Of a stretch of DNA of 64,000 nucleotides, positions 12,657-61,824 are shown one piece after another. Each line of letters opens with the position of its first letter. Within the stretch, counting starts at the first letter, position 1. The notes beneath the pieces are model-generated. The model had not been told where the DNA came from. It made no database searches and saw nothing but the letters and a program-made list of their open reading frames with translations. The position numbers and the translations under genes were made by a program. The DNA comes from Pleurocapsa sp. FMAR1 (GTDB lineage: Bacteria > Cyanobacteriota > Cyanobacteriia > Cyanobacteriales > Xenococcaceae): assembly GCF_963665995.1 (NCBI RefSeq), contig NZ_OY762512.1:248001-312000 (forward strand), given 5' to 3'.

Positions 12657-12920
12657 GGGTATTTTAGGATAACGGTTAAATCTATTAGTTCAATGGTACA
12701 AGATACAAGTTACCTGAGTTAGAGATGCAATCTTGCTTCGCAATATATTCTCGTTTCAGAATAAAAAGATAATCGCGTTTATTTTCTGCAAGCTCGCTAT
12801 CATTATCAAAAAGGTGATTGAATATATTTGCAGTGTTTTACTCAACAAGTATCTTAAGCATTAAAATTTAAAAGTTAAGCTGTCCATAAGATAAAAACCT
12901 ATGAACAAGAAAGGGTAGTC

Positions 12921-13310
12921 CTAAAGATGTAAGGACGTGTTGTAATGATGGACAAAATACCAGATTGCCCCGATCTGATTTTCGATTTTCTTAGAGAACG
13001 ATAGAGTCTTCCTGACTAATCGAGAAACTCTTTGTCGCATTGTGCAATTAAATCGTTCTATGTAATTGGTTTTTCTCTCTTTCCCCACCGCTTGATGGCG
13101 TTTTGAAGGAATTACCTGTTCATAGGCTTCCCAGAAGTCACTATAACAAACGGCACACTGTCGATAGACTGAGGGCAAAGATTGCCATAGCTTTCTCGCT
13201 CCATGACGACGGCGATCGCCGATATGAACCCCGACTATTTCTTTAGTTTTTGCAGCCAAAGCCAACCAAATCCATTGTTTATTGGCTTTATTACCGACAA
13301 ATGACCACAT
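12921..13310 (-). CDS. IS1 transposase InsB frame (copy 1)
   Basis: Catalytic part of the IS1-type DDE transposase: MWSFVGNK, YSDFWEAYEQV and TNYIERFNCTMRQRVSRL. It has no good start of its own. It is joined to InsA by a -1 shift on the run of nine A residues before GGAAAATT, after which the frame reads KGKLTIQCDEMWSF and includes the first aspartate. The fusion would be about 230 aa. Confidence 0.85.
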   Translation of the reverse strand: MWSFVGNKANKQWIWLALAAKTKEIVGVHIGDRRRHGARKLWQSLPSVYRQCAVCYSDFWEAYEQVIPSKRHQAVGKERKTNYIERFNCTMRQRVSRLVRKTLSFSKKIENQIGAIWYFVHHYNTSLHL

Positions 13311-13327
13311 TTCATCACACTGAATCG

Positions 13328-13648
13328 TTAATTTTCCTTTTTTTTTGTTCTCACTTTAACTTGCTGAGAAACTGATTCGTATTTAGCATTGACATAACTC
13401 TGTAACCAAGGTTCTGAAACTTCTGTAACTCGGGCAATTCCAGCTAAAGGAATCTTCTCTAAGAGTAATTTGTCAATCAAGTTTTTGGTTGGTTGGTCGA
13501 TCATTTTATTCTGTGGATTTTCCACATATTGTCTACCACAGTCGCGACATTTATAATTTTGCTTGCCATTGTGAATGTGACCGTTTTTAACAATTTGTTC
13601 TGAATTACATGATGGACAAGATGGCAAATCTACTGGCATGGAAATCAA
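13328..13648 (-). CDS. IS1 InsA DNA-binding frame (copy 1)
   Basis: A 106-aa protein with an N-terminal zinc finger (CPSCNSEQ and CRDCGRQY) and a helix-turn-helix (LAGIARVTEVSEPWLQSYV). InsA binds the IS1 ends and acts as repressor alone or as part of the InsAB transposase after frameshifting near its end. Confidence 0.85.
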   Translation of the reverse strand: MISMPVDLPSCPSCNSEQIVKNGHIHNGKQNYKCRDCGRQYVENPQNKMIDQPTKNLIDKLLLEKIPLAGIARVTEVSEPWLQSYVNAKYESVSQQVKVRTKKKEN

Positions 13649-13676
13649 ATGATCTACAATTTCCTATTTTATATCC

Positions 13677-13991
13677 TTACATCTTTAGGACTACCAAAAT
13701 CTGTAACGATACCTGAGTAGCTGCCAACGCGATAAGGTTTAGTATTCCCCCTAGTTTTCCCAGAAAATTTAAAAGCTTGCCTCCTAATGCTTTTACTTCA
13801 CCGCCAATTTTAGCTAGTTCAGCTAATAAAGCCTGTATTCTGGGGTCAAATATACCAAGTGCAGCAGTAGCTCCTAGAGCAGAAGCGGTTTGTATTATTC
13901 TGGGTTTTTCTGACTGGTCTAGCTTGCCAGAGACTTGAGCTTCTACTTTCTTTACTTCTAGCTTGGTGGCTAACGCTGTACATTCGCTCAT
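13677..13991 (-). pseudogene. Phage-region hypothetical protein truncated by IS1
   Basis: The frame opens MSECTALATKLEVKKVEAQV and is alanine- and glycine-rich with a hydrophobic C-terminal half (KLLNFLGKLGGILNLIALAA). The native part ends at 13696, where IS1 copy 1 begins; the last residues come from the IS end. It is the third gene of a minus-strand group with the genes at 14002 and 14664. The hydrophobic tail suggests a membrane or structural protein. No family recognised. Confidence 0.6.
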
Positions 13992-14001
13992 ATTTGATTA
14001 C

Positions 14002-14658
14002 CTATTTTTTAAAACTTTTCACTACTTCGCCTGTCTTTTCGTCGTAACAGCAAACGGTATTCCCGCAGCTACATTCACAAGTACCTGGAGGACATTGATT
14101 TCCGCATGAGTAAGTAACTTCAGGGCAGGTATCTTTTATTTGTTGATAAACGACATTGCTGTTTTTGAGGATTCTAAAATTACAATTAGTTGGTATTGGT
14201 TGATTGTCGGCAGCTATAAACCTTTGACTCCAGTGTCCATCATTCGAGCCTATAAAAATAGTCGCTATTTCTCCTAAAGAATCAACGACCTCTACATAAA
14301 AATCGGCAGTACGTTGACCTGCTGGTCTTGTATCGTATTTGTCTGTGCTAGGCTTATAAACATAGGTAAAAAATTTGTTGTCGGCTGGATAAGAGATAAC
14401 CCCTTTATAGACTACCTTTAGTCGCCAGGATAGAATGCCATTAAACCGATCTGAGTTGTACCTCGTGCGGTCGCTATTCCAAGTCACTACACCGTTATTA
14501 ATATTAGAAGAACGATAGACAAGGTTGTAGTAGGTATCACGCGGGTAAACGAACTGTGTGCTGAGAGTATAATCATCAGCTTTTAAAATACGCTGTTTTG
14601 CTCCGCCTGAGTACTGCCATTCAATAATAGGGTCTTCGTTATTAAGACACAAAACCAT
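14002..14658 (-). CDS. Hypothetical protein with Cys-rich C-terminus (phage region)
   Basis: A 218-aa protein rich in Tyr, Asp and Ser with an alternating beta-strand pattern (YKGVISYPADNKFFTYVYK), as in phage tail or fibre proteins. The last 45 residues hold nine cysteines (CPEVTYSCGNQCPPGTCECS and CGNTVCC), which could bind metal or form disulfides outside the cell. It lies 5 bp after the gene at 14664-15023 on the same strand. The function is unknown; a virion surface role is inference. Confidence 0.6.
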   Translation of the reverse strand: MVLCLNNEDPIIEWQYSGGAKQRILKADDYTLSTQFVYPRDTYYNLVYRSSNINNGVVTWNSDRTRYNSDRFNGILSWRLKVVYKGVISYPADNKFFTYVYKPSTDKYDTRPAGQRTADFYVEVVDSLGEIATIFIGSNDGHWSQRFIAADNQPIPTNCNFRILKNSNVVYQQIKDTCPEVTYSCGNQCPPGTCECSCGNTVCCYDEKTGEVVKSFKK

Positions 14659-14663
14659 AATAG

Positions 14664-15023
14664 TTAAACCGCATTGTCAGGGTCAAATGCTGTTGAGTCT
14701 ACCGTATAGACAGAAAACACAAATTCATTTTTAACCTGCGCAGTTTCTTGTCTGACTTCAAAGGTTTTAGGAGAAAAAGATTCAGAAGCTACAAGAGAAT
14801 TAGTTTTATCTACTACGTCTAATCCGTTAGCGTCTTTAACTGGCTTTGAATTCTGATGGATTCCAGCAACCAAAGTTGCTATCTTTTGACTGACTGTAGC
14901 AGTGGCAGGAGTGTCTAACATCCGTGTGCCGCTGGCAAACTTGAAATCAGTTAAATCAATGGTAATAGTTGAACCGCTTGAGGTAGCGTTTTCGCCTAAA
15001 ATACTAGTTAAAGTTTGAGCCAT
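14664..15023 (-). CDS. Hypothetical protein, phage region
   Basis: A 119-aa acidic protein starting MAQTLTSILGENATSSGSTI, with beta-rich, low-complexity Thr/Ser composition and a hydrophilic middle. It is the first gene of a three-gene minus-strand group transcribed away from the plus-strand phage genes at 15227 onward; the 203-bp gap must hold both promoters. It has no recognisable motif. The composition would fit a virion component, but this is a guess. Confidence 0.55.
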   Translation of the reverse strand: MAQTLTSILGENATSSGSTITIDLTDFKFASGTRMLDTPATATVSQKIATLVAGIHQNSKPVKDANGLDVVDKTNSLVASESFSPKTFEVRQETAQVKNEFVFSVYTVDSTAFDPDNAV

Positions 15024-15226
15024 AATTGTTTTTATTGTTGGTGGTTGTACAGATTGTTTTGTCAGCTTGATTGCTGTTTTTTAAACATCAAGAAAATGTT
15101 TTTTAGATTGCAAAACAGAGGCTGATAACGATACACGAGTGCTTAAAAAGAACTAGTTAGAATCTTAACACCTAAAATTAAAAGTTAGTATAAATGTATT
15201 AATCAAGACAAGCGAGGTACGAACTT

Positions 15227-16030
15227 GTGAGTAAACCAGATGTAGAAACGTTTCAAAGTTACTGTAGAACCTACTTTAATAGGGCTATAAACAAGCATTT
15301 TAGAGACGTTGACGGTAGTGACGACGCTAGTCTTAGTACGGCTGCGCCTAGACAACTAATTAAACGGATTTGTCTACATAAGGATACAGATACGATGACT
15401 CTTACTTTAGCCAGGATGTTGACTTGGTGGGTAGAAGCAGGGAACTTGTTAGATGAATATATCTATGGTATTCCTAGTACTGACTTTGAGATATCTAACA
15501 CCTATTATCCTCAAGTAAAGCTTCACTTTAGAGAAGATAAATACGAGGCTTACGATAATGACAGAAAAGTCGCTAGAAGTGAAGTAAGTTTTCGCTGGAG
15601 AGAAGAAGATTATTCAACGGTAAATATTAATCAACTGGCTACAAAAATATTAAATGACTTTGCTAAACCTGTATTTTTTTATAGAAAAGGAAGAAAAGCC
15701 TTTACCTATTGGGACAAAGAAAAAGCATATAGATTTACAGTTTATACAGATGACGGAACGGATGCTAAAAAGATAATTGAACAAGTAATTAGAATACAAG
15801 ACAACAGCGAGCCAGATTGGGATAATAACTTGAGAGAACATAAAGACGGCAAAGACTACAACGTACCTGGTAGTGTTCGAGTAATGGCCAAGCTTATACG
15901 CAAGCCAAAGAGAAGGCCGTTAGCTACAGTAAAATTTGCTTATGCAGAATTATTCATTCCTGGTACTACGCAGCCAATAGTTTTAGTAGACGCTTCAGGC
16001 TATAAAACCAAAGCTATAAAACGCGCTTGA
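15227..16030 (+). CDS. Hypothetical protein, first gene of the plus-strand phage operon
   Basis: A 267-aa protein starting at GTG 15227 (MSKPDVETFQSYCRTYFNRA). An alpha-helical N-terminal half (RQLIKRICLHKD, LARMLTWWVEAGNLLDEYI) is followed by a charged beta-rich half ending KTKAIKRA. I do not recognise it. It heads a run of closely spaced plus-strand genes that leads to the lysis genes, which in phages usually places structural or assembly genes here. Confidence 0.6.
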   Translation: MSKPDVETFQSYCRTYFNRAINKHFRDVDGSDDASLSTAAPRQLIKRICLHKDTDTMTLTLARMLTWWVEAGNLLDEYIYGIPSTDFEISNTYYPQVKLHFREDKYEAYDNDRKVARSEVSFRWREEDYSTVNINQLATKILNDFAKPVFFYRKGRKAFTYWDKEKAYRFTVYTDDGTDAKKIIEQVIRIQDNSEPDWDNNLREHKDGKDYNVPGSVRVMAKLIRKPKRRPLATVKFAYAELFIPGTTQPIVLVDASGYKTKAIKRA

Positions 16031-16130
16031 CAAACTTCGCGCCCTATAGGTCGACTATCTTGGAACACAGTTGAAAATAGGAAGAACAAGAGTTATTAAT
16101 GGATTACTAATCAACCATTTTTAAACAGCC

Positions 16131-16721
16131 ATGGGAAAACCGTATTCCGACTTAGATAAACGCGCATTTGCGATACTTAGCAATGGTGGAAACCCTGCTA
16201 CCAGTCAAGATAAAGAACTAGCAAAATACTGGGCATGGAAATTAGACCCGTCAGCTACAAGTCATGATTTAGACGCAGCTTCAGTTAGAACGACAGGCAG
16301 AAAGCTGAATTACATAGGTATTAATCCTTTTGGAATAGACATGGCAGCTAACAACTACGCCAAGGTAACCGTCACCAAAAGAACAGACGCTATTTTAACC
16401 GATGTTTTAGAAAATATTCTAAAACACGAAAAAGACCCCACAGGAAAAGTATTCTATCCTTTAAAAGGGTTTAAACCAGCGAAAGTTTATTTTCGTAGAG
16501 GCGCAGCTACTAGTCCGCGTCCTGAAACTAGCCGTATTACGGGTAGAAAGTACAAAACCTACTATCAGAAAGGAGATTTAGGCTATAGCGCACCTTTTGG
16601 TCAAGGCGTTGAATCGGATACTTTTTTATCAAAGTCAGCACAAATAAGAGGTGCTATTCAAACAGCATTTGCAGACGCTAGCTTAATTACTTTTTCTCCT
16701 GAAAAAGTAAGAGGTTCGTAA
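16131..16721 (+). CDS. Hypothetical protein, phage region
   Basis: A 196-aa basic protein (MGKPYSDLDKRAFAILSNGG) with a repeated Lys/Arg/Tyr-rich central part (SRITGRKYKTYYQKGDLGYS). It ends four bases before the next gene. There are no cysteines and no visible enzymatic motif. It may be a nucleic-acid-binding or virion protein; the position between the operon head and the lysis genes is the only support. Confidence 0.55.
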   Translation: MGKPYSDLDKRAFAILSNGGNPATSQDKELAKYWAWKLDPSATSHDLDAASVRTTGRKLNYIGINPFGIDMAANNYAKVTVTKRTDAILTDVLENILKHEKDPTGKVFYPLKGFKPAKVYFRRGAATSPRPETSRITGRKYKTYYQKGDLGYSAPFGQGVESDTFLSKSAQIRGAIQTAFADASLITFSPEKVRGS

Positions 16722-16724
16722 CTA

Positions 16725-16931
16725 GTGAACAACCTGCCAGAGTCAATAATGTTATGGTTACCTTCTTATTTAACTGAAGACGAAGAAGCAATGACTAACG
16801 TTACCAAAGCGAACGGTCTGCTTATGGACTTTTGCGATTGCGACGTTAGCTTTGACGAGTTCTCAACCATGGACGTTAACGTAGATGATTTCAGAGAGAA
16901 CCTAGATTTTTATTTAAGACAGAGAGAATAA
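16725..16931 (+). CDS. Small acidic hypothetical protein, phage region
   Basis: A 68-aa very acidic protein starting at GTG 16725 (MNNLPESIMLWLPSYLTEDE), with a DCDVSFDEF and a VDVDDF-like pattern. It is tightly spaced: 3 bp after the previous gene and 4 bp before the next. No family recognised. Confidence 0.5.
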   Translation: MNNLPESIMLWLPSYLTEDEEAMTNVTKANGLLMDFCDCDVSFDEFSTMDVNVDDFRENLDFYLRQRE

Positions 16932-16935
16932 CGTA

Positions 16936-17670
16936 ATGCCAGCAGGTCAGGACCTGATATTCTTTGATAATTCTAGGGATTGGCAGGTTGTGGCTGATGT
17001 TAGTACGTTAGCTCAGCCTTTGCCAGGCGACAGGTTTGTCCCTATCTCACCTATTGACCTTGGTGTTAGCTTGCTTTGTGACTACATAGCTGTTGTAGCT
17101 ACAACAGAAGTAGGTAAGCCTAGCTGGCAGTTTGCAGGGGATATCAGACAGGTTTACAACTTTGTACCTGGTGGCAGTAGTCCTGTGACAAGCGTTCTTC
17201 AAAGTTTACCGACACGCTTGTTTATTAATAAGTTACAGATAGTTGAAACAAATCGGATTAGTACCGATAGGTTTAGGCTTAGATATACCCCACCGTTTTG
17301 GTTTAGAAGCTGTGCGATTAGGGTGTACGAGTACACGGGAGATACGCTTAACTTTGTTGAAGATTCTTTGTTTAACATCGGTAATGCTTTGGGTGCTTTC
17401 TCTAATCAGCCAGAAAGCTTGATAGAGGCTCAGCTAACAATCATTGAAGAGTTGATAACCGATAAGTTTGCAGAATTAAGAAACAGGGAGTCTTCCCAAG
17501 TACAGCTTGATGACTTTAGAGAGTCGCAACTTAATACTCGGATTAGTCAGACAAATGCTGGGGTTTACACCTTAGCTGAGGGACTGGCTGCGATACTGCC
17601 ACCTGAACAAGGAGAGGCTTTGAGACGAGCGGTAAGTAACAGATTACAACTAGATTTAGGATTCTTGTAA
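16936..17670 (+). CDS. Hypothetical protein, phage region
   Basis: A 244-aa protein. The first 150 residues are beta-rich (WQFAGDIRQVYNFVPGG, RFRLRYTPPFWFRSCAIRVY). The rest is helical with coiled-coil character (LIEAQLTIIEELITDKFAEL). Its stop overlaps the next start (TAATG at 17668). A virion protein with a trimeric or fibre-like arrangement would fit, but there is no family match I can name. Confidence 0.55.
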   Translation: MPAGQDLIFFDNSRDWQVVADVSTLAQPLPGDRFVPISPIDLGVSLLCDYIAVVATTEVGKPSWQFAGDIRQVYNFVPGGSSPVTSVLQSLPTRLFINKLQIVETNRISTDRFRLRYTPPFWFRSCAIRVYEYTGDTLNFVEDSLFNIGNALGAFSNQPESLIEAQLTIIEELITDKFAELRNRESSQVQLDDFRESQLNTRISQTNAGVYTLAEGLAAILPPEQGEALRRAVSNRLQLDLGFL

Positions 17671-18167
17671 TGGAAAATTCAATAAAGAAAGATATTATTT
17701 TAAACGGTACGGATTCGATAACCGTATTTAAAGAAGATGGCTTGGTGTATAGGGCAAAAGACTTAGAAAGCTATACGCCGATAGTACTTAAGAATCTAAG
17801 GGCAAATATCGAACATACTTTTGACTTGGAATCAGTGTCTAGCTGTAATTATCAGGTTATTAGAATAGTAACAGATGTCAAAGCAGATGACGATGTTGTC
17901 GCCCTTGATGAGCAAACAGCTTCTAGTTACACAAGTGCAAGCGGGTTTATATCTGTTATCAGACAGGGCAAAAGGGTTTATCAACAATACTTTACGTTTA
18001 CGCAATTTGTTGGCACCTATAATGCTTTGTTTTTCGAGACAAACGACTTAATACGCGTTAAAGCATTTGAAGACACGAAGTCTATAACGCTTTACTGTCA
18101 GCCTGTTTATTTAGAAAAAACAATAATTGTACCAGAGGTGATAACAGATGAGCCTGTCATTTCATAA
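17670..18167 (+). CDS. Hypothetical protein, phage region
   Basis: A 165-aa beta-rich acidic protein (MENSIKKDIILNGTDSITVF) with regular Thr/Ser/Tyr strands and a short acidic tail. It overlaps the endolysin gene by 20 bp, so it is the last gene before lysis, where tail-tip or virion-surface genes commonly lie. No family recognised. Confidence 0.55.
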   Translation: MENSIKKDIILNGTDSITVFKEDGLVYRAKDLESYTPIVLKNLRANIEHTFDLESVSSCNYQVIRIVTDVKADDDVVALDEQTASSYTSASGFISVIRQGKRVYQQYFTFTQFVGTYNALFFETNDLIRVKAFEDTKSITLYCQPVYLEKTIIVPEVITDEPVIS

Positions 18168-18774
18168 GGCGAGAGAACGAGCGATACAAATAATATCTAG
18201 TAAAAAGAATGAGGATGGGTATCTGGATGTAGATTATTTAATCGATGATGAAGCAAGAAAAGTCTTAAACCTGCCTTCTAGACCAAAAGATGCGTTACCT
18301 TACGTTGGCTGGATGGTAGATAACAAGGACGTCAGTTTAGCACCTACTAAGACTTCTCTATTGGGAATTAATCTAATAAAGAAATACGAGGGACTAAGAA
18401 CCAATGCTTACCTGTGTCCTGCAAACGTTTGGACAATTGGCTATGGGCATACCAAGGGAGTCAAGCAAGGACAAATGATTAGTCATTTAGACGCAGAGAA
18501 GCTATTGAAAGATGACCTGACAGTCTTTGAAAAAGCTGTAGTCAAGCTTGTTAGTGTACCTCTAGGTCAGAATCAATTTGATGCACTGGTTAGCTTTGTT
18601 TTTAATGTAGGCATTAGTGCGTTTAGTGGTTCTACTTTGCTTAAGCTACTTAACCAAGGTAAGACCAGTGCAGTAGCAGAACAGTTTAGTCGTTGGGTTA
18701 ATGCTGGTGGTCAAAGGCTACCTGGTTTAGTTAACCGCAGACTAGATGAACGTGATTTATTTGTAAAACAATGA
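18148..18774 (+). CDS. Phage endolysin, lysozyme of family GH24
   Basis: A 208-aa protein whose residues 70-205 form a T4-type lysozyme. The catalytic triad spacing is visible as Glu81 (KKYEGL), Cys90 (AYLCPANVW) and Thr96 (TIGYGHT). The cysteine in place of aspartate matches the E-C-T form known from the P1 endolysin. The conserved NQFDALVSFVFNVG and NRRLDERDLF follow. It cleaves the glycan of peptidoglycan to release phage. The 70-residue N-terminal extension is not a signal peptide. It is coupled to the next gene by ATGA overlap. Confidence 0.92.
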   Translation: MSLSFHKARERAIQIISSKKNEDGYLDVDYLIDDEARKVLNLPSRPKDALPYVGWMVDNKDVSLAPTKTSLLGINLIKKYEGLRTNAYLCPANVWTIGYGHTKGVKQGQMISHLDAEKLLKDDLTVFEKAVVKLVSVPLGQNQFDALVSFVFNVGISAFSGSTLLKLLNQGKTSAVAEQFSRWVNAGGQRLPGLVNRRLDERDLFVKQ

Positions 18775-19172
18775 TTAATAAGAACTTTTCTAGACTACCT
18801 CCATTGTCATTAAACTTGCTTTCTGGGGGTGCTTTTGTTTTTATCGTCTGCTTAGGTATTCGTGTTGCCCGTGCACCTGAGGTTGGCTTAAAAGTAGCCA
18901 ATACACAATTGATTATCGGCAGTAGTGCAAACAAGCTTTCTGAAGTAGCAGTTAAACTAGATAATCAAGCTGAGATTATCAGACAGAAGGACGAGGCTTA
19001 CGAAAAGCTAAGGAAAGTATATGAAGAGTCTTTAAAAGGACAAGAAGGATACGGAAAGTTACAAGGAGCAATAGAAGAGATTCAAGAATTACCAGAAGTA
19101 AGAAATACAGAAGAATTACGAACAGAAATATTAGCTACCAAGAAAATAATCAAGCAAGTGGCTAGTGAGTAG
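18771..19172 (+). CDS. Rz-like spanin or lysis accessory membrane protein
   Basis: A 133-aa protein with one transmembrane helix near residues 12-33 (LNLLSGGAFVFIVCLGIRVA), then a long charged coiled coil (about 45-130, EIIRQKDEAYEKLRKVYEES). This is the layout of inner-membrane spanins (Rz) and of some holins. It follows the endolysin with an ATGA overlap, the usual place for spanin genes. Assignment rests on topology and position, not on sequence similarity. Confidence 0.65.
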   Translation: MINKNFSRLPPLSLNLLSGGAFVFIVCLGIRVARAPEVGLKVANTQLIIGSSANKLSEVAVKLDNQAEIIRQKDEAYEKLRKVYEESLKGQEGYGKLQGAIEEIQELPEVRNTEELRTEILATKKIIKQVASE

Positions 19173-19574
19173 ATGTGTATCTGAAAAGTCTAGTAGAAAG
19201 TCTAGTAGACTTTTAGAATACGTACTCAAAAGAAGGAACAAGCAAGGTTTTTATATAAGTATTTATTTCCCTGTGGCTACGCCCACCCGCCCCTAGTATA
19301 TTTCCCTTGAAGCAAAGCGGAATAGGGTTATTAATATAATTGCTTTTGAAATCACTAACGTCAATAGTTAGTAAATAATTATTTACATAAAAAATAATAT
19401 TTTCAATTATTTAACGAACAAGCTAATTTTTATCTAAAATTTAAGTGTTTTTACTGATGCGAGAGAAAAAAAAGGATAGTAGATGAAGTTTAAAAAGTCA
19501 AATTCACTTACCTTTGAATCAAAGCTCTGAGAGATTACTTTTAAGACTTTAGTTAACAATTGAATAGAAAAATT
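19173..19574. other. AT-rich gap after the lysis genes
   Basis: The only clear structure is a hairpin at 19197-19213 (AAAGTCT-AGT-AGACTTT) followed by weak T-rich sequence, a likely transcription terminator for the lysis operon. No supported gene is seen on either strand in the rest. Confidence 0.45.
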
Positions 19575-19886
19575 ATGCTTGATTTGGAAACTATTAGTTG
19601 GCAAGAAATGGTAGGTAATAGATATACTAAGGCTTTGCATCCTGCTATGGTTAGTAAAGCTGGATACGAAAAGGTCAAAAGCGTTCGACGTATTGGTGAC
19701 GCTGTACCAACCGCCTTTAGAGTTATTTATGACCGTCAATATGTTATTGATTACGTAGGCAGAGGAATATGCAAAACTCTATTTGTTTTAGGTAAACAAG
19801 GTGTATTAAATCTTGTTGATGAAGCATGGGACAATTACTACGGAGTCCTGGACGTTGAACAAGCTACTACCGAGGAATCTGTATAA
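19575..19886 (+). CDS. Hypothetical protein, phage region
   Basis: A roughly 103-aa protein. The ATG at 19575 (MLDLETISWQEMVGN) is preferred to the TTG at 19560. It has a basic middle (KVKSVRRIGD) and an acidic tail. Its TAA overlaps the ATG of the nuclease gene (TAATG), suggesting a coupled early operon. No family recognised. Confidence 0.5.
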   Translation: MLDLETISWQEMVGNRYTKALHPAMVSKAGYEKVKSVRRIGDAVPTAFRVIYDRQYVIDYVGRGICKTLFVLGKQGVLNLVDEAWDNYYGVLDVEQATTEESV

Positions 19887-20276
19887 TGCCAGTAAAACCA
19901 AAATACAAAGCAAAGCCTGTCATTTGGAATTCAAAAGATTGTCGTGTTGAACCTGCTGAAATAATAGAAAGCTTTCGAATAAAGGAAAGGTTTAAATTAC
20001 CTTCTCATATCTGGAGGTTTGATTCCCAGCATGAGTTTAAAGTTTATTTAGAACTCGAAAGAATGTATGGCGAACACAGGGTTTTAAGGCAAGTCCCTGT
20101 ATTGGTAATTGCACCTGGTTTCTCTTATCCAAAAGGCAAAACATGGAAAGTTGACTTTGCAATCTCTAGTGGTGCTGAAGGTGTTAAGCCTCTGCTTTAC
20201 GTAGAGGCTAAGGGTGCATTCTTAACTGAATTTGCTCTAATTTTAGGCATCCTAGAAGAATACCAGTTTAATGTTT

Positions 20277-21051
20277 GGTAGTCCTGCAGAAGTAATGATC
20301 TAGAATGAGCCTTGACATTTAAAAAGCTAGACCAATGCCAACTTGCCCAAATTGTTCTTCTGAGGAAACTGTTAAAAACGGTCACATTCACAACGGAAAA
20401 CAAAGATTTAAATGTAATGAGTGCGAGCGCCAATTTATTGAAAATCCTCAGAAAATCATGATTAGCCAAGACAAGCGCGAGCTAATTGACAGGCTCTTAT
20501 TAGAAAGAATTTCCTTGGCTGGTATTGCACGTGTGGCAATGGTTTCTGAGAGATGGCTACAAACATACGTCAATAATAAATATGCTCTGGTAGCAAGAAC
20601 AATACAAGTAACACAAAAAAAAAGGAAAGTTGACTATTCAAGGTGATGAACTCTGGTCATTTGTAGATAATAAAGGCAACAAACAATGGGTCTGGTTAGG
20701 GTTAGATGCAGATACTAAGGAAATTGTGGGAGTTTATGAGGCGCGATCGCGATGAATTAGCAGCTAGAAAACTCTGGGATTCGTTACCTTCGGTCTATCG
20801 TCAATGTGCAGTTGCTTACACTGACTTCTGGTCATCTTATGGGGCAGTATTTCCCCGTCAACGACATAGATCAGTAGGAAAAGAGACTGGTCAAACGAGT
20901 TATATTGAACGATTTAACAACACACTTAGACAACGGGTATCTCGGCTAGTTAGGAAAACCTTATCCTTTTCTAAATCCCTAGAGAATCACATAGGTGCTA
21001 TCTGGTATTTCGTACATCACTACAACTCATCATTACATCTTTAGCACTACC
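20277..21051 (+). mobile_element. IS1-family insertion sequence, copy 3 (diverged)
   Basis: 775 bp with terminal inverted repeats GGTAGTCCTGCAGAAGTAAT and its imperfect complement. It is flanked by a perfect 8-bp duplication TAATGTTT (20269-20276 and 21052-21059). It is related to but clearly diverged from copies 1 and 2, and in the opposite orientation. Its transposase gene has an extra frameshift, so it is immobile alone. Confidence 0.92.
20335..21044 (+). pseudogene. IS1 transposase frames of copy 3, frameshifted
   Basis: InsA (20335-20646, MPTCPNCSSEETVKNGHIHN) is intact. The InsB part begins GDELWSFVDNKGNKQWVWLG after the A-run frameshift site and reaches EIVGVY. It then loses the frame near the GCGCGATCGCGATGA sequence at 20741. 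The remaining catalytic half (ARKLWDSLPS, TSYIERFNNTLRQRVSRL) continues in the frame from 20706. The second shift inactivates it. Confidence 0.8.
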
Positions 21052-21197
21052 TAATGTTTTTCGCAAGCTTAAGATTGTTTTTCCTGAAAAGCTACCAGTC
21101 AGAAGCAAAGTAGCAAAGTAGCAAAGGCACTGCTTGAGTCAGATTTTAGAAAGAACTTGCTTACGTTAAAAGAATTAGAGAAATTTAGAGTATTGCC

Positions 21198-21419
21198 ATG
21201 ACACCAATAGAATCACCTTACGATGTTCGACTTGTTACCTTAATCGGTTTAGCTATCAACGCAGTTGAAACGTTAGCACTCGAACAGGATAGAGACCCAG
21301 AGACAATCATAGCAGAGTTGCTATATGTAACGAACAAGAGGCTACACGAAACAGGAGAAAAAGACTATCTGAGAAAACTATCTTCTCATTATTCTATCCT
21401 CTCAGAAGCAATCTATTAA
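21198..21419 (+). CDS. Small hypothetical protein, phage region
   Basis: A 73-aa helical acidic protein (MTPIESPYDVRLVTLIGLAI) with no recognised motif. It lies between the broken nuclease and the next small genes of the replication cluster on the same strand. Its role is unknown. Confidence 0.45.
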   Translation: MTPIESPYDVRLVTLIGLAINAVETLALEQDRDPETIIAELLYVTNKRLHETGEKDYLRKLSSHYSILSEAIY

Positions 21420-21452
21420 TCGTTTTAACGCAAACATATACCGAGAACAGTA

Positions 21453-21923
21453 ATGACAGTAAAGTATTTAGACCCCTACAAAGACGACCCCTATGGCAAA
21501 CTCAGAGGAGACAAAGCAGAAGCTTACTTTAAAATCTCGTTTGACGAGGCTAAGGTTTACTCTACAGATGATGCTTACATTGTGGCTGCTTTTATCACTA
21601 ATTATTCTGGGGTCGTTAGGAGCTTCAAAGCAAGCGACGCGCTACTGCCAGGACTATGCGCCATCCCTATCTACGGACGAGAATACGAGATAAGAGGAAA
21701 AGATGCTAACGGTAACTGGCAGGGAGTTAAATATCAACCATCTGTGTTTGAGAAGGCTTTGTATGACCATATTAAGGTGCATGAAGCTTTCTTTATTCCT
21801 CCTTCTGGTGGTATTAAAGGCGAACTTACTTTTGTACCTAACGGGATATGTGCGTCGATGGACGAGGCTGCTTTAAATGCCTTGGTGGCAACAAATGTAA
21901 ACACTCAGGTCATTGGTCATTGA
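21453..21923 (+). CDS. Hypothetical protein of the phage replication cluster
   Basis: A 156-aa protein (MTVKYLDPYKDDPYGKLRGD) with mixed alpha/beta composition and a KGELTFVPNG segment near residue 125. I do not recognise it. It precedes the helicase gene by two small steps on the same strand, which suggests a DNA-replication accessory such as a single-strand-binding or regulatory protein, but nothing in the sequence proves it. Confidence 0.5.
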   Translation: MTVKYLDPYKDDPYGKLRGDKAEAYFKISFDEAKVYSTDDAYIVAAFITNYSGVVRSFKASDALLPGLCAIPIYGREYEIRGKDANGNWQGVKYQPSVFEKALYDHIKVHEAFFIPPSGGIKGELTFVPNGICASMDEAALNALVATNVNTQVIGH

Positions 21924-22005
21924 CTTAAGTGGGAAGCTGCCAGAGTACTCAGTGCCGTTTAGTGGGGGTTTCAAGAAGAATGGTAGCGATAGCAAAGGAA
22001 TATCT

Positions 22006-22179
22006 ATGGATGAAAAAGTAGCTTTTCTCAAGAAGCTATTGATTGCAGAAATTACAGACGTTGCTTTTACTGAAAGCGATTCTTTAGGTGTTCTTACAAG
22101 ACAAATACAAGTGAGATTTGAAGATTGCGACGGTTTTGCTGATATTTACTTTGAAATGCTGATGGCAATTATTAGATAA
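22006..22179 (+). CDS. Small hypothetical protein before the phage helicase
   Basis: The ATG at 22006 (MDEKVAFLKKLLIAEITDVA) follows a good AAAGGA ribosome-binding site, so it is preferred to the TTG at 21913 that would overlap the previous gene. It gives a 57-aa acidic protein. It ends 2 bp before the helicase start, so the two are co-translated. No family recognised. Confidence 0.5.
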   Translation: MDEKVAFLKKLLIAEITDVAFTESDSLGVLTRQIQVRFEDCDGFADIYFEMLMAIIR

Positions 22180-22181
22180 CT

Positions 22182-22988
22182 ATGGCTTTTGATTACTCGG
22201 GATTATTCAAGTCTGAGGAGGGAACAGGTGACACTTGGCAAGGCTTTTATAACGATGAATTGACTTTAGCCCAAAACCTGTTAATCGCTCTAGAACAAAC
22301 AATATTTCTGCCTTATGACTTTTACGATATTATCGCTGCTTACTTCCTGTTGCCTTCTGCTTTGTGCAAGATTGTGCCTTATCTATTCCTTAACGGACAA
22401 TCGGGAAGCGGTAAGTCAACAGTTGCTAAACTGGCTGGATATTTACACGGCAGTCCAGTTAACTCTAGTAGTGATACTTTTGCTGCGATAAGGAACAGTC
22501 TTTCAAAAAGAAAAAAAGCATGGGCATACAGGCAAGGAGCAGAACCAGGGGAAGTAGGCAGTGCGGTATCTGTTGAGAAAAATATCTGTATGGTTTGGGA
22601 TGACGTAAGCGCGAGTACCTTTACCAATAGCCCTGAACTTTACAATATGTTTAAGTTCGGCTATGACAAAAGTACAGACAAGATAATTGTTTCTTCTAGA
22701 GAAACAGGGGTGAACATAGAGTTTAGATGCTTTTGTCCAAAGATATTCTCTAGCATTACACCACTGCACCTAGACGACCGCTTTAAAGAGCTAAAAAGAC
22801 GATTGATAGTAATCCCTTGTAAACGAGTAGAAGAACTTACGGACGAGCGTAAAAACGAGCTAGGGATAACTGACAATAACTGGCAAAATAAGCTGCTCGA
22901 CATTAGTAAAAAAAATATTAAAGAGTTTGACAGGCTTGTTAGGCAAAGAAGCTATGGAAAGCAAACAGGCAAGGCAGAAAGCACTTAA
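22182..22988 (+). CDS. Phage-type superfamily 3/D5-like helicase ATPase
   Basis: A 268-aa P-loop ATPase. Walker A is GQSGSGKST (72-80) and a Walker B-like MVWDDV lies near residue 128. VSSRETG and DDRFKELKRRLIVIP follow, as in primase-associated helicases. The protein is short and lacks a primase domain, so it is either a minimal helicase or one half of a split primase-helicase. It would unwind element DNA at replication. The 3' end overlaps the next gene by 35 bp. Confidence 0.75.
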   Translation: MAFDYSGLFKSEEGTGDTWQGFYNDELTLAQNLLIALEQTIFLPYDFYDIIAAYFLLPSALCKIVPYLFLNGQSGSGKSTVAKLAGYLHGSPVNSSSDTFAAIRNSLSKRKKAWAYRQGAEPGEVGSAVSVEKNICMVWDDVSASTFTNSPELYNMFKFGYDKSTDKIIVSSRETGVNIEFRCFCPKIFSSITPLHLDDRFKELKRRLIVIPCKRVEELTDERKNELGITDNNWQNKLLDISKKNIKEFDRLVRQRSYGKQTGKAEST

Positions 22989-23217
22989 GTTCTGGGAACT
23001 TAAGCACGCGATAGATGATGAGGTGGCTACTCTAGGCTGGTCTACTACAGCCTGTAGGAATGTTATCAATAAACGCTATCGGAAGCGTTCTAGGTTGCTT
23101 TTGAGCGATGAGCAGCTAGAAGACTTATTGGCTTATTTACAGGGTTTGAATGCTGGTGTAGACAGGCAGAAAGCTATTGAAAAGAAAGAGAAAAGAAAGA
23201 AGCGTAGGCATAAGTAG
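22954..23217 (+). CDS. Basic hypothetical protein after the helicase
   Basis: An 87-aa basic helical protein from the ATG at 22954 (MESKQARQKALKFWELKHAI), with a Lys/Arg-rich C-terminus (EKKEKRKKRRHK). It overlaps the helicase gene. Probably DNA-binding by charge; no family recognised. A TTG start at 22927 is possible. Confidence 0.5.
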   Translation: MESKQARQKALKFWELKHAIDDEVATLGWSTTACRNVINKRYRKRSRLLLSDEQLEDLLAYLQGLNAGVDRQKAIEKKEKRKKRRHK

Positions 23218-23221
23218 AAAA

Positions 23222-23245
23222 CGTATCACGTTTCGTATCACGTTT
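23222..23245. promoter_or_regulatory. Tandem direct repeat, putative operator of the RHH gene
   Basis: CGTATCACGTTT occurs twice head-to-tail, 30 bp before the start of the ribbon-helix-helix-like gene. Tandem 12-bp sites are a usual arrangement for RHH repressors that bind cooperatively, so autoregulation is a reasonable inference. Confidence 0.5.
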
Positions 23246-23274
23246 TAGGAATATATAAACATCAACGGAGAGCT

Positions 23275-23583
23275 ATGAGAGAAAAAGTTAAGCGACACAG
23301 GACGTTCAGCTTAGATACGGAAACAGTAAAAGTAATAGAGCGAAAGTCTATTGAAAAGAACGGCAATTACAGCAGAGCTCTAGATGCAATAGTACGAGAA
23401 TGGATAATACTTAAACGAGAAGAACCGCTTGACCTTTGGGAACTTGACCTCACGAGTACGACATTAGAACTGCGGTTAGCAGAACTTAGTGACAGCCACA
23501 TCCTACTGGGGTATGCTCTTAGTCGTCTCTGGCTTGACGTCAGAGACACGAACATAGCGATTGAAGAAGAAGAGGCTAATTAG
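23275..23583 (+). CDS. Putative ribbon-helix-helix regulator, phage region
   Basis: A 102-aa protein whose first 50 residues fit a ribbon-helix-helix fold: a short strand (HRTFSLDTETVKVIER), a turn with NGNYSRALDAIV, and a helix. The second half is acidic and helical. Paired with the gene at 23731, which has the same domain, and preceded by tandem repeats. An 18-bp palindrome AGAGGCTAATTAGCCTCT covers its stop codon (23571-23588) and may terminate transcription. Confidence 0.6.
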   Translation: MREKVKRHRTFSLDTETVKVIERKSIEKNGNYSRALDAIVREWIILKREEPLDLWELDLTSTTLELRLAELSDSHILLGYALSRLWLDVRDTNIAIEEEEAN

Positions 23584-23730
23584 CCTCTATTATAACCCCA
23601 AAGAAGCGTTTTCAAAAAGTTTCAAATCCTCTCCTATGGAGGGGGTCAAACCAACGCTTATAGCAAAAAATCAGAGCTATTTGAGTGATTTTAGGTAGAT
23701 TCGATAAATTGTACGTATTGGAGAAAAATT

Positions 23731-23988
23731 ATGGATAGAGAAAATTTTGAACCTAGAACTTTTATGATGTCAGACAGAACCGTGTCTATAATAAGCACGG
23801 TCGCTACGGATAGAGACATCAGAGCAGCTAGTGCTTTGGATTTAATAATACAAGAGTGGTTAGATTACGAAAGAGGAAAAGTGGCAAAGAAGATATCAAT
23901 AGCACGTAATTTACGCAGAATAATAGAAACTCAAAAAGAAGCAATGAGGTTGATAGATAAAATACAAGAAGAAGTAAATAGCGATTGA
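23731..23988 (+). CDS. Putative ribbon-helix-helix protein, phage region
   Basis: An 85-aa protein (MDRENFEPRTFMMSDRTVSI) with the same strand-helix-helix pattern as the gene at 23275: TFMMSDRTVSIISTVAT, ASALDLIIQEWLDY, and a basic coiled tail. It is the last gene before the phage attachment region. A regulatory or excision-related role is possible. No direct family match. Confidence 0.55.
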   Translation: MDRENFEPRTFMMSDRTVSIISTVATDRDIRAASALDLIIQEWLDYERGKVAKKISIARNLRRIIETQKEAMRLIDKIQEEVNSD

Positions 23989-24235
23989 AAACAGGCTAAT
24001 AGAGGTAAGGGAAAATAGAAATAATAAGGTACGCATGGCGGGATGTGCATAGGGCTAAAATCGCATCCTCGTGTGAGCAGAGGTCAGAGTAAATTTCAAT
24101 TCCCAGGTTTGACAGTTTGACGAGGTTGTGATATTTTACAGCCCGTCTTTTTTGTGTGCTTATTTAAGCGCTTGATAAATTGAGGTACATAAGTACTCGT
24201 TGCGCTCGTTACTAGGTTATTGCTATATTCAGTTT

Positions 24236-24253
24236 TGAGTAAGTTTTGAGTAA
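24236..24253 (+). other. Paired arm-type sites of the prophage integrase (tRNA side)
   Basis: TGAGTAA occurs at 24236-24242 and 24247-24253, spaced 11 bp, 62 bp from the tRNA-Pro 3' end. The same pair with the same 11-bp spacing lies next to the truncated integrase (61713-61730). This is the layout of integrase arm-binding sites at the two prophage ends. Confidence 0.6.
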
Positions 24254-24314
24254 AAAGCTGCTTTTGGAAAGCAGGGATAGAGGTGAAAGTTAAAGATACC
24301 GAGGTTTTACGAGG

Positions 24315-24344
24315 TATCGGGATGAAAGGATTTGAACCTTCGAC
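24315..24344 (-). repeat. Prophage attachment core in the tRNA-Pro 3' end
   Basis: The last 28 nt of the tRNA plus two bases are repeated exactly at 61795-61824, on the opposite strand. Identity stops sharply on both sides. This is the classical attachment core of tRNA-targeting tyrosine integrases. Confidence 0.75.
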
Positions 24345-24390
24345 CCCTGCTTCCCGAAAGCAGTGCGCTACCAAGCTGCGCCACATCCCG
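24317..24390 (-). tRNA. trnP: tRNA-Pro (anticodon CGG)
   Basis: A 74-nt cloverleaf on the minus strand: acceptor CGGGATG/CATCCCG, D arm GCGC...GCGC, anticodon stem CTGCT/AGCAG with loop TTCGGGA (anticodon CGG) and T arm GAAGG/CCTTT. No CCA is encoded. It is the integration target of two elements: a prophage at its 3' end, and the 11-kb element at its 5' half, which was regenerated on integration. Confidence 0.95.
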
Positions 24391-24429
24391 CATTCGCATA
24401 TATGCTAACATATAAAGCCACAATCAAGA
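24352..24429. repeat. Left attachment repeat of the 11-kb element
   Basis: A 78-bp sequence identical to 35390-35467 in the same orientation. It covers tRNA-Pro nucleotides 1-39, ending at the anticodon loop, and 39 bp upstream of the tRNA. The flanks differ on both sides. Confidence 0.92.
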
Positions 24430-35389: not shown

Positions 35390-35467
35390 TCCCGAAAGCA
35401 GTGCGCTACCAAGCTGCGCCACATCCCGCATTCGCATATATGCTAACATATAAAGCCACAATCAAGA
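35390..35467. repeat. Right attachment repeat with orphan tRNA-Pro 5' half
   Basis: An exact copy of 24352-24429. It carries nucleotides 1-39 of tRNA-Pro and the 39 bp upstream, but the tRNA 3' half is absent; after the anticodon loop the sequence becomes unrelated. Confidence 0.92.
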
Positions 35468-59250: not shown

Positions 59251-59292
59251 TTTATTGTTAAATCCAGTTTGGCGATTGAGTGATTTTTTTGT

Positions 59293-59480
59293 GGAAAAAG
59301 CGATCGCAGTATTCTCGTAGCTAAGTTGATACAGCAAGCCCGTCCCTATACTTTTCCTGAAGTTACAAGTAACCTTATTTCTGGAAAAAGCGATCGCAGT
59401 ATTCTCGTAGCTAAGTTGATTCCCTATACTTTTCCTGAAGTTACAAGTAACCTTATTTCTGGTAGATTAGCAGGTCAAAT
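59293..59480 (+). repeat. Tandem duplication inside an antitoxin-like remnant
   Basis: Unit 1 (59293-59392, 100 bp) and unit 2 (59393-59480, 88 bp) are identical except for 12 bp missing from unit 2. They encode YTFPEVTSNLISG twice. The tail GRLAGQIQISDDFNES resembles the C-terminus of small type II antitoxins, so this is a duplicated gene fragment. Confidence 0.65.
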
Positions 59481-59658: not shown

Positions 59659-59853
59659 GAGTCTACGTTTAAATTAGGACTCTTATAGAATGCTGTAACT
59701 TATGTATTACTTGGGCTTTTAGAAGATATGACTTGCGTGTCATTTAGGTAAAACTTACGTATGCTTATGAGATCGCTACAATAATCAATAGTAATTGCTT
59801 TAAATTATGGGAAAAAAATCTCATCAAGTATTAGAGATACATATTGGGTAGTC

Positions 59854-60243
59854 CTAAAGATGTAAGGACGTGTTGTAATGATGGACAAAATACCAGATTG
59901 CCCCGATCTGATTTTCGATTTTCTTAGAGAACGATAGAGTCTTCCTGACTAATCGAGAAACTCTTTGTCGCATTGTGCAATTAAATCGTTCTATGTAATT
60001 GGTTTTTCTCTCTTTCCCCACCGCTTGATGGCGTTTTGAAGGAATTACCTGTTCATAGGCTTCCCAGAAGTCACTATAACAAACAGCACACTGTCGATAG
60101 ACTGAGGGCAAAGATTGCCATAGCTTTCTCGCTCCATGACGACGGCGATCGCCGATATGAACCCCGACTATTTCTTTAGTTTTTGCAGCCAAAGCCAACC
60201 AAATCCATTGTTTATTGGCTTTATTACCGACAAATGACCACAT
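59854..60243 (-). CDS. IS1 transposase InsB frame (copy 2)
   Basis: Same protein as in copy 1 (MWSFVGNK, YSDFWEAYEQV, YIERFNCTMRQRVSRL). It differs from it at one synonymous base near 60085. Expressed by -1 frameshift from InsA. Confidence 0.85.
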   Translation of the reverse strand: MWSFVGNKANKQWIWLALAAKTKEIVGVHIGDRRRHGARKLWQSLPSVYRQCAVCYSDFWEAYEQVIPSKRHQAVGKERKTNYIERFNCTMRQRVSRLVRKTLSFSKKIENQIGAIWYFVHHYNTSLHL

Positions 60244-60260
60244 TTCATCACACTGAATCG

Positions 60261-60581
60261 TTAATTTTCCTTTTTTTTTGTTCTCACTTTAACTTGCTGA
60301 GAAACTGATTCGTATTTAGCATTGACATAACTCTGTAACCAAGGTTCTGAAACTTCTGTAACTCGGGCAATTCCAGCTAAAGGAATCTTCTCTAAGAGTA
60401 ATTTGTCAATCAAGTTTTTGGTTGGTTGGTCGATCATTTTATTCTGTGGATTTTCCACATATTGTCTACCACAGTCGCGACATTTATAATTTTGCTTGCC
60501 ATTGTGAATGTGACCGTTTTTAACAATTTGTTCTGAATTACATGATGGACAAGATGGCAAATCTACTGGCATGGAAATCAA
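60261..60581 (-). CDS. IS1 InsA DNA-binding frame (copy 2)
   Basis: Identical in sequence to the copy 1 protein: N-terminal CPSCNSEQ zinc finger, helix-turn-helix and the A-run frameshift site before the stop. Confidence 0.85.
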   Translation of the reverse strand: MISMPVDLPSCPSCNSEQIVKNGHIHNGKQNYKCRDCGRQYVENPQNKMIDQPTKNLIDKLLLEKIPLAGIARVTEVSEPWLQSYVNAKYESVSQQVKVRTKKKEN

Positions 60582-60601
60582 ATGATCTACAATTTCCTAT
60601 T

Positions 60602-61720
60602 TTATATCCTTACATCTTTAGGACTACCCCACTTAACCAACTTTTTGCGTGCCTCTTTGGCGTAGAATTTAGTTAAAGTACTAGTGTTTTTGCTTTCAGG
60701 TTTATTGACAGGCAAAAGAGGGGTTTTGATACTTAGCTTGTCTATCAGGTTGGGATACTTGGGAGGTATCTGTGGTCTAGCCAACCTGCTACCTGTTTTA
60801 ACTGTAGTACCGATTGCTGTTTCTTCACCTATGTAGATTAGATTATCTGTGTTGCTAGCATCGTTGAGGGCAGGTATAGATAATACACCGTCTTTTGTGA
60901 CATAAGGCTCGAATAGGTTTTTAATAGCAAAGACTTCGCTTATTCTGAGAGCATAAACTATTTGAGTAGAGAACACCCATAACCAAGCTTTCCGCACATC
61001 TATTCTAGAATTCTTATGCAAGGTAGATGTAATCCCTTCTGTCCTGTCTTTCCACTCAATGAATTGTTCGAGGTCAATAGTTTGTAACTCAGTGAAATCT
61101 GTTTGGACAGTATCTAGCTCCTCAAGGACCAAAAGAATGCTTTTTTGTTTGTTGAATCTCGTAAGCTTCCTCATAGCGGAGACAGCTTCACCATAAAGCT
61201 TAGTTCCTTTTTTCCACTTGCTGATAACTTTTTCTATTTTTTGTAGGCTAATAATTTCGTTCAAAGGAAGATGTCTGTAATAATTGCCGTAAGTCACTTT
61301 CCAACTTTGAATGTGACTCGGATTATTCCTGCTTCTTTTTTTCTTTCTTCTATCGGGTCTACTCCAAAAATCATCTTCTACTTTCTTGATAGCCTCTTCA
61401 AAAGTTAGTCTGTCGTTAGCTAATTGAGATTCCTGCTTAATTTCTTTTTCATACCACTGCCAAAATTCAGATTCAGATGACAAGTCTTTTAATGCCTCTG
61501 CTACTTTGTTTGACTTTTTAAGAGCATCTACCATGCCATCTAAGGTAAACGTACAATTACACGCATAAGGCTTTCTTGCTGCATTAGTGGTCTTGAATTG
61601 TAGGTAGATATTTTGTCCTTTACGAGTCATCCCTACGCCCCTAGGGGTTTGCTTTTGGTATCTGCCAAAATCTGCTAACAGGGATTCGTACCCTATTTCG
61701 CCTGTGTAATCCTTACTCAT
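60602..61720 (-). pseudogene. Prophage tyrosine integrase truncated by IS1
   Basis: About 364 native residues (MSKDYTGEIGYESLLADFGR) up to KKLVKWG at 60629, then IS-derived residues. It has an N-terminal arm-binding region, a core-binding domain and the first catalytic arginine (IVYALRISEVFAIK). The HxxR box and the tyrosine nucleophile are missing, so it is inactive. It starts 75 bp from the tRNA-Pro 3' fragment and next to TGAGTAA arm sites, which identifies it as the integrase of the prophage whose other end is at 24315. Confidence 0.82.
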
Positions 61721-61756
61721 TTTTTACTCACTTTGCTTCTAAAGGTTAGTGAGTAA
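61713..61756 (-). other. Arm-type sites of the prophage integrase (integrase side)
   Basis: TTACTCA at 61713-61719 and 61724-61730 (11-bp spacing) and one TGAGTAA at 61750-61756. The pair and spacing match those at 24236-24253. Confidence 0.6.
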
Positions 61757-61794
61757 GCCTTGAAGCCGATGAGGCTTGGTAACTTCAGTAGGAT

Positions 61795-61824
61795 GTCGAA
61801 GGTTCAAATCCTTTCATCCCGATA
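61795..61824 (+). repeat. tRNA-Pro 3'-end fragment, distal prophage attachment site
   Basis: 30 bases identical to the 3' end of tRNA-Pro (24344-24315), including the T arm GAAGGTTCAAATCCTTT and acceptor CATCCCG. The preceding sequence does not fold as a tRNA, so this is an attachment site, not a gene. Confidence 0.8.

What the first reader, a model, noticed from the sequence alone, without database searches (positions are those of the whole stretch)
12914..61824. One prophage split into two pieces 37 kb apart, with IS1 at both broken ends
The tRNA-Pro 3' end (24315-24344) and a 30-bp fragment at 61795-61824 are identical but inverted. Next to each lies a pair of TGAGTAA sites with the same 11-bp spacing (24236/24247 and 61713/61724), about 62-65 bp from the core. 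This is the symmetry expected of the two ends of one integrase-mobilised prophage. The phage-like genes at 13696-24316 stop at IS1 copy 1, and the integrase stops at IS1 copy 2. Flipping 13696-59846 on paper brings the pieces together as a normal prophage. The two IS copies are direct, not inverted, and lack target duplications, so simple recombination between them does not explain it; further IS copies or several steps are needed.
Basis: partly seen in the sequence, partly recalled or inferred. Interest (0 to 1): 0.75.

Follow-up and report, generated by a model that had tools for sequence, protein, structure and literature searches.

The report
Mobile element split by insertion sequences
A tRNA-targeting mobile element in a cyanobacterial chromosome has been broken in two and partly deleted, most likely by IS1 insertion sequences, and its intact relatives form a family of cyanobacterial elements with no match in the phage collections searched.

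Summary
A 30-bp tRNA-Pro 3' end lies at 24315-24344 and, inverted, at 61795-61824. Each adjoins two TGAGTAA sites spaced 11 bp. Two 782-bp IS1 copies stand in direct orientation without target duplications. That both pieces come from one element is well supported. The same genome carries a 15-kb sibling at tRNA-Leu with the same integrase family, gene order and end layout. Of 17 tRNA-Pro(CGG) loci examined, only three have the paired sites; all three have a family integrase beside a tRNA-Pro fragment in their genome.

Corrections: flipping does not restore a normal prophage. About 3.4 kb is gone (integrase C-terminus, a small gene, most of an ~800-aa gene); searches of the genome found that stretch only in the sibling. 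The predicted lexA/tRNA-Pro/phosphoesterase neighbourhood was not seen in relatives. "Prophage" is unproven: an endolysin is the only clear phage-type gene. The conserved module (~800, 267, ~190, ~160-244 aa) is widespread in cyanobacteria; its 267-aa marker had no match in phage records, IMG/VR pattern scans or PHROGs.

Likeliest route (inferred): inversion between inverted IS1 copies, then deletion between direct copies. One relative weakly supports the outer junction. Two other IS1 copies carry 8-bp flanks of the window copies, suggesting IS circles.

The parts
12914..13695 (-). IS1-family copy 1 (782 bp; transposase on the minus strand)
   Evidence: IS1 domain tested on the copy-2 protein
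13696..13991 (-). N-terminal ~99 codons of the ~800-aa module gene F1, cut by IS copy 1
   Evidence: match to residues 1-99 of the 777-aa G002 protein; clustering
14002..14658 (-). family gene F9, unknown function
14664..15023 (-). family gene F5 (related to F7), unknown function
15227..16030 (+). family gene F0 (267 aa), module marker found in 97 of 388 genomes searched
   Evidence: model
16131..16721 (+). family gene F3 (196 aa)
   Evidence: model
16725..16931 (+). family gene F6 (68 aa)
16936..17670 (+). family gene F2 (244 aa)
18148..18774 (+). phage-lysozyme endolysin
20277..21051 (+). second, diverged IS1-type copy with 8-bp target duplication TAATGTTT, interrupting the gene at 19886
22182..22988 (+). 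shortened P-loop gene (268 aa; 397 aa in the sibling)
24236..24253 (+). arm-site pair TGAGTAA x2, 11-bp spacing, tRNA-side end
24315..24344 (-). core: tRNA-Pro 3' end, element side
24317..24390 (-). intact tRNA-Pro(CGG)
59254..59305 (+). match to the 3' end of a gene that in relative G007 lies next to the arsR gene of the left flank
59847..60628 (-). IS1-family copy 2 (782 bp), direct to copy 1
60629..61720 (-). tyrosine-integrase gene, cut by IS copy 2 after about residue 367 of 470; its last codons are read in the IS
61713..61730 (-). arm-site pair TGAGTAA x2, 11-bp spacing, integrase-side end; one site overlaps the start codon
61750..61756 (+). third, inverted TGAGTAA site, seen at the same place in most relatives
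61795..61824 (+). core: detached tRNA-Pro 3' fragment

Best explanation
One roughly 15-kb integrative element of a cyanobacterial family sat in the 3' end of tRNA-Pro, with its integrase at the far end beside the displaced tRNA fragment. IS1 copies then broke it. Two-step route (inferred): an IS1 copy in gene F1 and an inverted copy in the chromosome recombined and inverted 13.7-59.8 kb. A second recombination, between direct IS1 copies at the new right junction and in the integrase gene, deleted about 3.4 kb of the element. This leaves direct copies with no target duplications and an integrase without its catalytic end, so the element should not excise by itself. Shown: one family, one gene order, matching ends, missing piece. 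Inferred: the order and number of steps, and that both pieces came from a single copy.
For:: the sibling at 4384.7-4399.9 kb of the same genome has integrase, then homologues of the window genes 14.0-24.3 kb in the same order up to tRNA-Leu; G002 has integrase followed by homologues of the genes at 13.7, 14.0, 14.7 and 15.2 kb; before 15 of 16 integrase genes examined (two of them from the window's own genome) a tRNA-like 3' end lies about 75-105 bp upstream; the arm pair stands at the tRNA side of the window, sibling (tRNA-Leu), G008 tRNA-Val, G002 and G013 tRNA-Pro; of 17 tRNA-Pro(CGG) loci it is found in 3 (window, G002, G013), which are genomes with an integrase beside a tRNA-Pro fragment, and in none of the other 14 (one with only 40 bp held); arms are TGAGTAA at both ends of the window element and TGAGCA-type at both ends of the sibling; the missing stretch is not in the window and was found in the genome only in the sibling; in G007 the left-flank genes (arsR, cation efflux) directly follow a gene whose 3' end matches 59254-59305, the outer junction that the inversion predicts.
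Against: No strain with the unrearranged order was found. The outer-junction evidence is one 52-bp match (84.6%) in one of five relatives that carry the left-flank genes; the fetched flanks (about 0.7-1 kb) of the other four gave no match to that gene. Of the 14 relatives two (G008, G009) have both flanking genes, each time on different contigs (G009 is in about 940 contigs). No IS copy preserves the predicted intermediate, and the extra copies that the route needs are assumed. The G013 case is tangled: the sequence beyond the tRNA end is the same at both places there and a second, distant integrase lies beside it.
Confidence: 0.75

Rival explanations
1. Two elements of the same family and same target stood in tandem at tRNA-Pro; the 10.6-kb piece is from one and the integrase end from the other, and the rest was lost.
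For: G002 carries two family integrases and the window genome two elements, so repeated acquisition happens.
Against: Needs two further losses. The lengths roughly add up to one sibling-sized element: 10.6 + 1.2 + about 3.4 kb, of which about 0.8 kb is a later IS, against about 15.2 kb in the sibling.
Confidence: 0.15
2. Assembly error: the flanks of two of the nine near-identical IS1 copies were joined wrongly.
For: Nine copies at about 100% identity.
Against: Single-contig 5.43-Mb genome; the two copies differ at one base; the missing 3.4 kb was found nowhere but in the sibling, which a mere mis-join would not cause.
Confidence: 0.06
3. Inversion through an inverted pair, followed by in-situ flipping of one IS copy (IS polarity inversion) plus an unrelated deletion.
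For: The appearance of in-situ flipping is reported for the IS1-family element ISKpn14 (PMC5001619, passage seen).
Against: Needs a separate deletion for the missing 3.4 kb; the inversion-plus-deletion route explains orientation and loss together.
Confidence: 0.2

Closest known systems
Split prophages produced by genome rearrangement (Helicobacter pylori; PMC11321410, passages seen)
   Same: Mobile-element pieces scattered by rearrangements including inversions, with pieces often missing
   Different: Here IS1 copies mark both breaks and the original ends can be matched by core and arm sites; host and element family differ
Tycheposons and the picocyanobacterial tRNA-linked integrases (PMC10187409, passages seen; the tycheposon paper itself not seen)
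   Same: Tyrosine recombinase beside a tRNA gene in cyanobacteria; groups of related integrases linked to different tRNAs
   Different: Not compared by sequence here. This family carries a conserved module of unknown genes and a fixed arm pair overlapping the integrase start
Phage satellites / P4-type integrative elements (recalled)
   Same: Size near 15 kb, tRNA site; VapE-like or DnaB-like genes near the module in three relatives tested
   Different: No packaging or capsid-hijack gene recognised; unknown 4-5-gene module; plasmid form with ParA/ParB in one case
IS1-family rearrangements and circles (Turlan and Chandler 1995, Shiga 1999: only reference-list entries seen; content recalled)
   Same: Copies carrying 8 bp of another copy's flank resemble products of circles with a short spacer
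   Different: Cyanobacterial IS; inferred only from present-day flanks

Membership tests
tRNA-targeted tyrosine-integrase element | Intact tRNA at one end and an identical 3' fragment at the other | tested here: met
   (30 bp); sibling 27 bp at tRNA-Leu; G008 tRNA-Val
tRNA-targeted tyrosine-integrase element | Integrase with R..H..R..Y catalytic residues | tested here: not met
   The window copy ends near residue 367 of 470, before the HADR/SLGH..Y stretch seen by eye in relatives; it is a broken member. The remnant matched nothing in Pfam or PHROGs; the full sibling copy matches PHROG integrase phrog_1 (E 1.3e-6)
Same element family as the sibling at 4384.7-4399.9 kb | Shared gene order over the element | tested here: met
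Temperate phage (prophage) | Recognisable capsid, portal, terminase or tail genes | tested here: inconclusive
   Of 14 window proteins from 13.7-24.0 kb plus the integrase remnant only an endolysin matched. Full F1 proteins of the sibling and relatives give weak PHROG hits to a minor head protein (E 1.4e-4), tail fibres (best E 1.6e-6) and a tail lysin (3.1e-4), in coiled-coil, collagen-like or glycine-rich stretches. No F0 relative in phage records or IMG/VR scans
Temperate phage (prophage) | Particles or DNA packaging | not testable with these tools
   needs culture
IS1 family | DDE_Tnp_IS1 transposase, two reading frames, ~8-bp target duplications | tested here: met
   Pfam E 1.8e-21; two frames; 8-bp duplications at L003, L007, L009
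Simple IS-pair inversion | Flanking copies in inverted orientation | tested here: not met
   copies are direct

The most novel reading that the evidence does not exclude
The broken element belongs to a widespread, undescribed lineage of cyanobacterial mobile elements: a conserved module (about 800 aa, 267 aa, about 190 aa or tandem ~120-aa paralogues, about 75 aa, about 160-244 aa) that may build a particle of unknown type. In the window's branch it travels with integrases that keep a fixed arm-site layout while the tRNA target changes between relatives, with one arm site overlapping the integrase start codon so that arm binding could also repress the gene.
Probability: 0.45. Interest if true: 0.65.

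Novelty: new variant of a known kind. Interest (0 to 1): 0.45.

Why it matters
A split prophage is known biology, but here the break can be read precisely, because the same genome keeps a sibling in the original gene order as a yardstick. It also exposes a common cyanobacterial element family: its marker protein occurs in 97 of 388 genomes searched (own included, E <= 0.001), yet tblastn found no match in 50,697 phage records and pattern scans none in IMG/VR. If the module makes particles, cyanobacteria carry a virus or satellite lineage that these collections miss. The integrases give a natural series in which arm sites stay constant and the tRNA target changes, a ready test of how tyrosine integrases switch targets.

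Tried and rejected
A single recombination between the two window IS copies: rejected, they are direct. IS replicative inversion from one copy: rejected on recalled mechanism, as it should leave inverted copies. A former joining of the left flank (260.9 kb) to the flank at 5136.9 kb, suggested by the shared 8-mer CAAGAAAG (chance 0.0031): first taken as a sign of a 553-kb rearrangement, then dropped, because L008 and L005 each look like insertions carrying 8 bp of another copy's flank. Cross-matches of this kind are unlikely by chance (at least one: 0.0058; two or more: 0 of 20,000 random draws). That test was made after seeing the matches, and the L002/L003 match was left out because those copies share more than 1 kb of flank.

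Finding the ancestral neighbour through phosphoesterase, lexA, GTPase and cation-efflux genes in relatives gave only the weak G007 junction. The F0 and F3 structure models (pLDDT 85.0 and 79.6) found no PDB match with E <= 0.001. The best viral match of F0, A0A510E869, has E 1.5e-3, probability 1.00 and TM-score 0.38 and was not identified. F3 was not searched against the viral library; F1 and F2 were not modelled. A pattern scan of the genome collection with F2 found no relative, although F2 relatives exist: pattern scans miss diverged members, so the empty viral-contig scans are weak negatives. tblastn against phages used F0 of the window, F0 of one relative and the integrase only. Literature searches listed no paper that I recognised as describing this family; only listings were read, apart from passages in four papers.

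Rows left out: of the 20 integrase loci returned, fourteen were examined for ends, with L097 and L103 added; L085, L088, L091, L092, L095 and L096 were not given to (L085 shows a similar end).
Full report
Setting. The window is G000:C1:248001-312000, part of a single-contig 5.43-Mb genome. Named loci that carry the element's 267-aa gene are nearly all cyanobacterial (43 of 44 by title; one record is titled Candidatus Gracilibacteria).

Observation. All stated features were found at the stated places: the 30-bp inverted identity, tRNA-Pro, the two TGAGTAA pairs with 11-bp spacing, and two direct 782-bp IS1 copies. TGAGTAA itself is common in the window, and the loose pair pattern is not significant there; its meaning comes from relatives.

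One element, two pieces. The same genome holds a sibling element between a 27-bp tRNA-Leu 3' fragment (near 4384.7 kb) and intact tRNA-Leu (near 4399.9 kb). Its order is integrase, small gene, 793-aa gene, then homologues of the window genes from 14.0 to 24.3 kb, then the tRNA; DNA identities are 79-91% in the main blocks and 67% in the integrase. Relative G002 has an integrase followed by homologues of window genes at 13.7, 14.0, 14.7 and 15.2 kb, at 34-76% protein identity. So the integrase at 60.6-61.7 kb and the block at 13.7-24.3 kb belong to one gene order seen intact elsewhere.

Ends. Before 15 of 16 integrase genes examined a tRNA-like 3' end lies about 75-105 bp upstream (by pattern and eye; the exception is L087). 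In 13 of 16 a TGAG[T/C]A pair stands at the same two positions; the other three (L082, L083, L087) show a variant heptamer repeated at the same spacing by eye. At the tRNA side the pair is present in the window, the sibling, G008 tRNA-Val, G002 tRNA-Pro and G013 tRNA-Pro. A systematic check of 17 tRNA-Pro(CGG) loci found it within 200 bp downstream in 3 (window, G002, G013; same distance in each) and in none of the other 14, one of which holds only 40 bp; random 200-bp stretches have such a pair in 136 of 20,000. G010 and G012, two of the 14, have no family integrase at E <= 0.001. The heptamer type agrees between the two ends of the window element (TGAGTAA) and of the sibling (TGAGCA-type). 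One arm site overlaps the integrase start codon (ATG-AGT-AAG in the window; GTG-AGT-AAG by eye in several relatives), so autoregulation is an inference. By eye, the 15 tRNA ends fall into about nine kinds; only Pro, Val and Leu were tied to a tRNA gene by ARAGORN. Integrases 52-90% identical to the window's thus sit at different tRNAs; the 90% case covers only 85 residues, and the closest long match at another tRNA is about 66% (G008, tRNA-Val).

What is missing. The window integrase matches residues 1-367 of a 470-aa relative; F1 keeps about 99 of about 790 residues. On the sibling's scale about 3.4 kb lies between these points. Searches of the genome with sibling DNA, F1 and the integrase C-terminus found only the sibling, apart from pieces already known in the window. 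The flip on paper therefore gives a deleted element. Further damage: a diverged IS1-type copy with its own 8-bp duplication at 20277-21051 interrupts one gene, and the genes at 21453-22179 and 22182-22988 are split or shortened against the sibling.

How it was split. Direct copies without duplications exclude one recombination event between them. An inversion between inverted copies followed by a deletion between direct copies accounts for orientation, absent duplications and the missing 3.4 kb together; this is inference. The inner junction is supported by the sibling and G002. The outer junction (left flank next to the 59.8-kb end) has one weak support: in G007 the arsR and cation-efflux genes (window 11.55-12.7 kb) follow a gene whose 3' end matches window 59254-59305 (52 bp, 84.6%, E 3.4e-9 among the fetched loci). 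The other four relatives with those genes (G004, G005, G008, G009) gave no match to that gene in the fetched flanks, and in the two relatives with both flanking genes (G008, G009) these lie on different contigs.

Other IS copies. L008 carries CAAGAAAG, the 8 bp left of window copy 1, at its right end, between what look like 8-bp repeats AAATGTCC. L005 carries ACATATTG, the 8 bp left of copy 2, at its left end, between TAAAAAT repeats. Random 8-mers give two such matches in 0 of 20,000 draws. This fits insertion from IS circles with an 8-bp spacer, known for IS1 from recalled literature; only the citations were seen.

What the element is. Of 14 element proteins from 13.7-24.0 kb and the integrase remnant, scanned in both Pfam and PHROGs, one matched, an endolysin (at least five smaller reading frames were not scanned). 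For a phage origin speak the endolysin and weak PHROG hits of full F1 proteins of the sibling and two relatives to a minor head protein (E 1.4e-4), tail fibres (best E 1.6e-6) and a tail lysin (E 3.1e-4), all in low-complexity-type stretches. The 267-aa protein F0 occurs in 97 of 388 genomes of the order, own included, many matches being weak, in 44 loci of the named genome collection and on two plasmids of one Nostocales strain, one of 15.6 kb with ParA, ParB and an integrase. In one genome (G341) two loci share a 7.2-kb stretch at 99.99% identity, a sign of recent movement. Among 60 loci with F0 (window and sibling included, some cut by contig ends), F1 lies within 1.5 kb in 53, an F3-position protein within 0.6 kb in 51, F2 within 2.2 kb in 45, and F1 and F2 both in 42. 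A DnaB-like helicase lies near the module in one locus tested and VapE-like proteins in two. No match in phage records for F0 or the integrase, none in IMG/VR pattern scans, no significant PDB fold match for F0 or F3. The safest name is an integrative element of unknown transfer mode; phage, satellite and plasmid remain open.

Verdict. The prophage label, the clean flip and the predicted relative are not confirmed. The splitting itself is ordinary for IS-rich genomes; the element family is the more interesting result.

Noticed in passing
24352-24429 and 35390-35467: A 78-bp direct repeat holding the 5' half of tRNA-Pro bounds a second island (24.4-35.5 kb) with its own integrase gene (24505-25323, apparently continued in another frame at 25316-25666). 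The same tRNA was entered from both sides.
   Followed up: partly
G000:C1:4384699-4399933 (L097, L098): Sibling element at tRNA-Leu in the same genome; its lysozyme gene is split into two frames (21716-22069 and 21972-22367 counted from 4372000).
   Followed up: yes
L005, L008: Two IS1 copies carry 8 bp of the flank of window copies 2 and 1, suggesting circle-type transposition in a cyanobacterial IS1.
   Followed up: partly
L002, L003, L007: IS copies L002 and L003 share about 1.4 kb of left flank, part of which also matches the right flank of L007: a larger repeat of the genome around IS1 copies.
   Followed up: no
L193, L194 (G341): Two copies of the module, 7.2 kb at 99.99% identity, in one genome: a likely recently active element.
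   Followed up: partly
59285-59462: Short interleaved direct repeats of about 42-46 bp (90 and 78 bp apart) between the GTPase gene and IS copy 2.
   Followed up: no
L250 9827-14821: A 1664-aa plasmid protein with a MACPF-like stretch on the 15.6-kb plasmid that carries the module.
   Followed up: no
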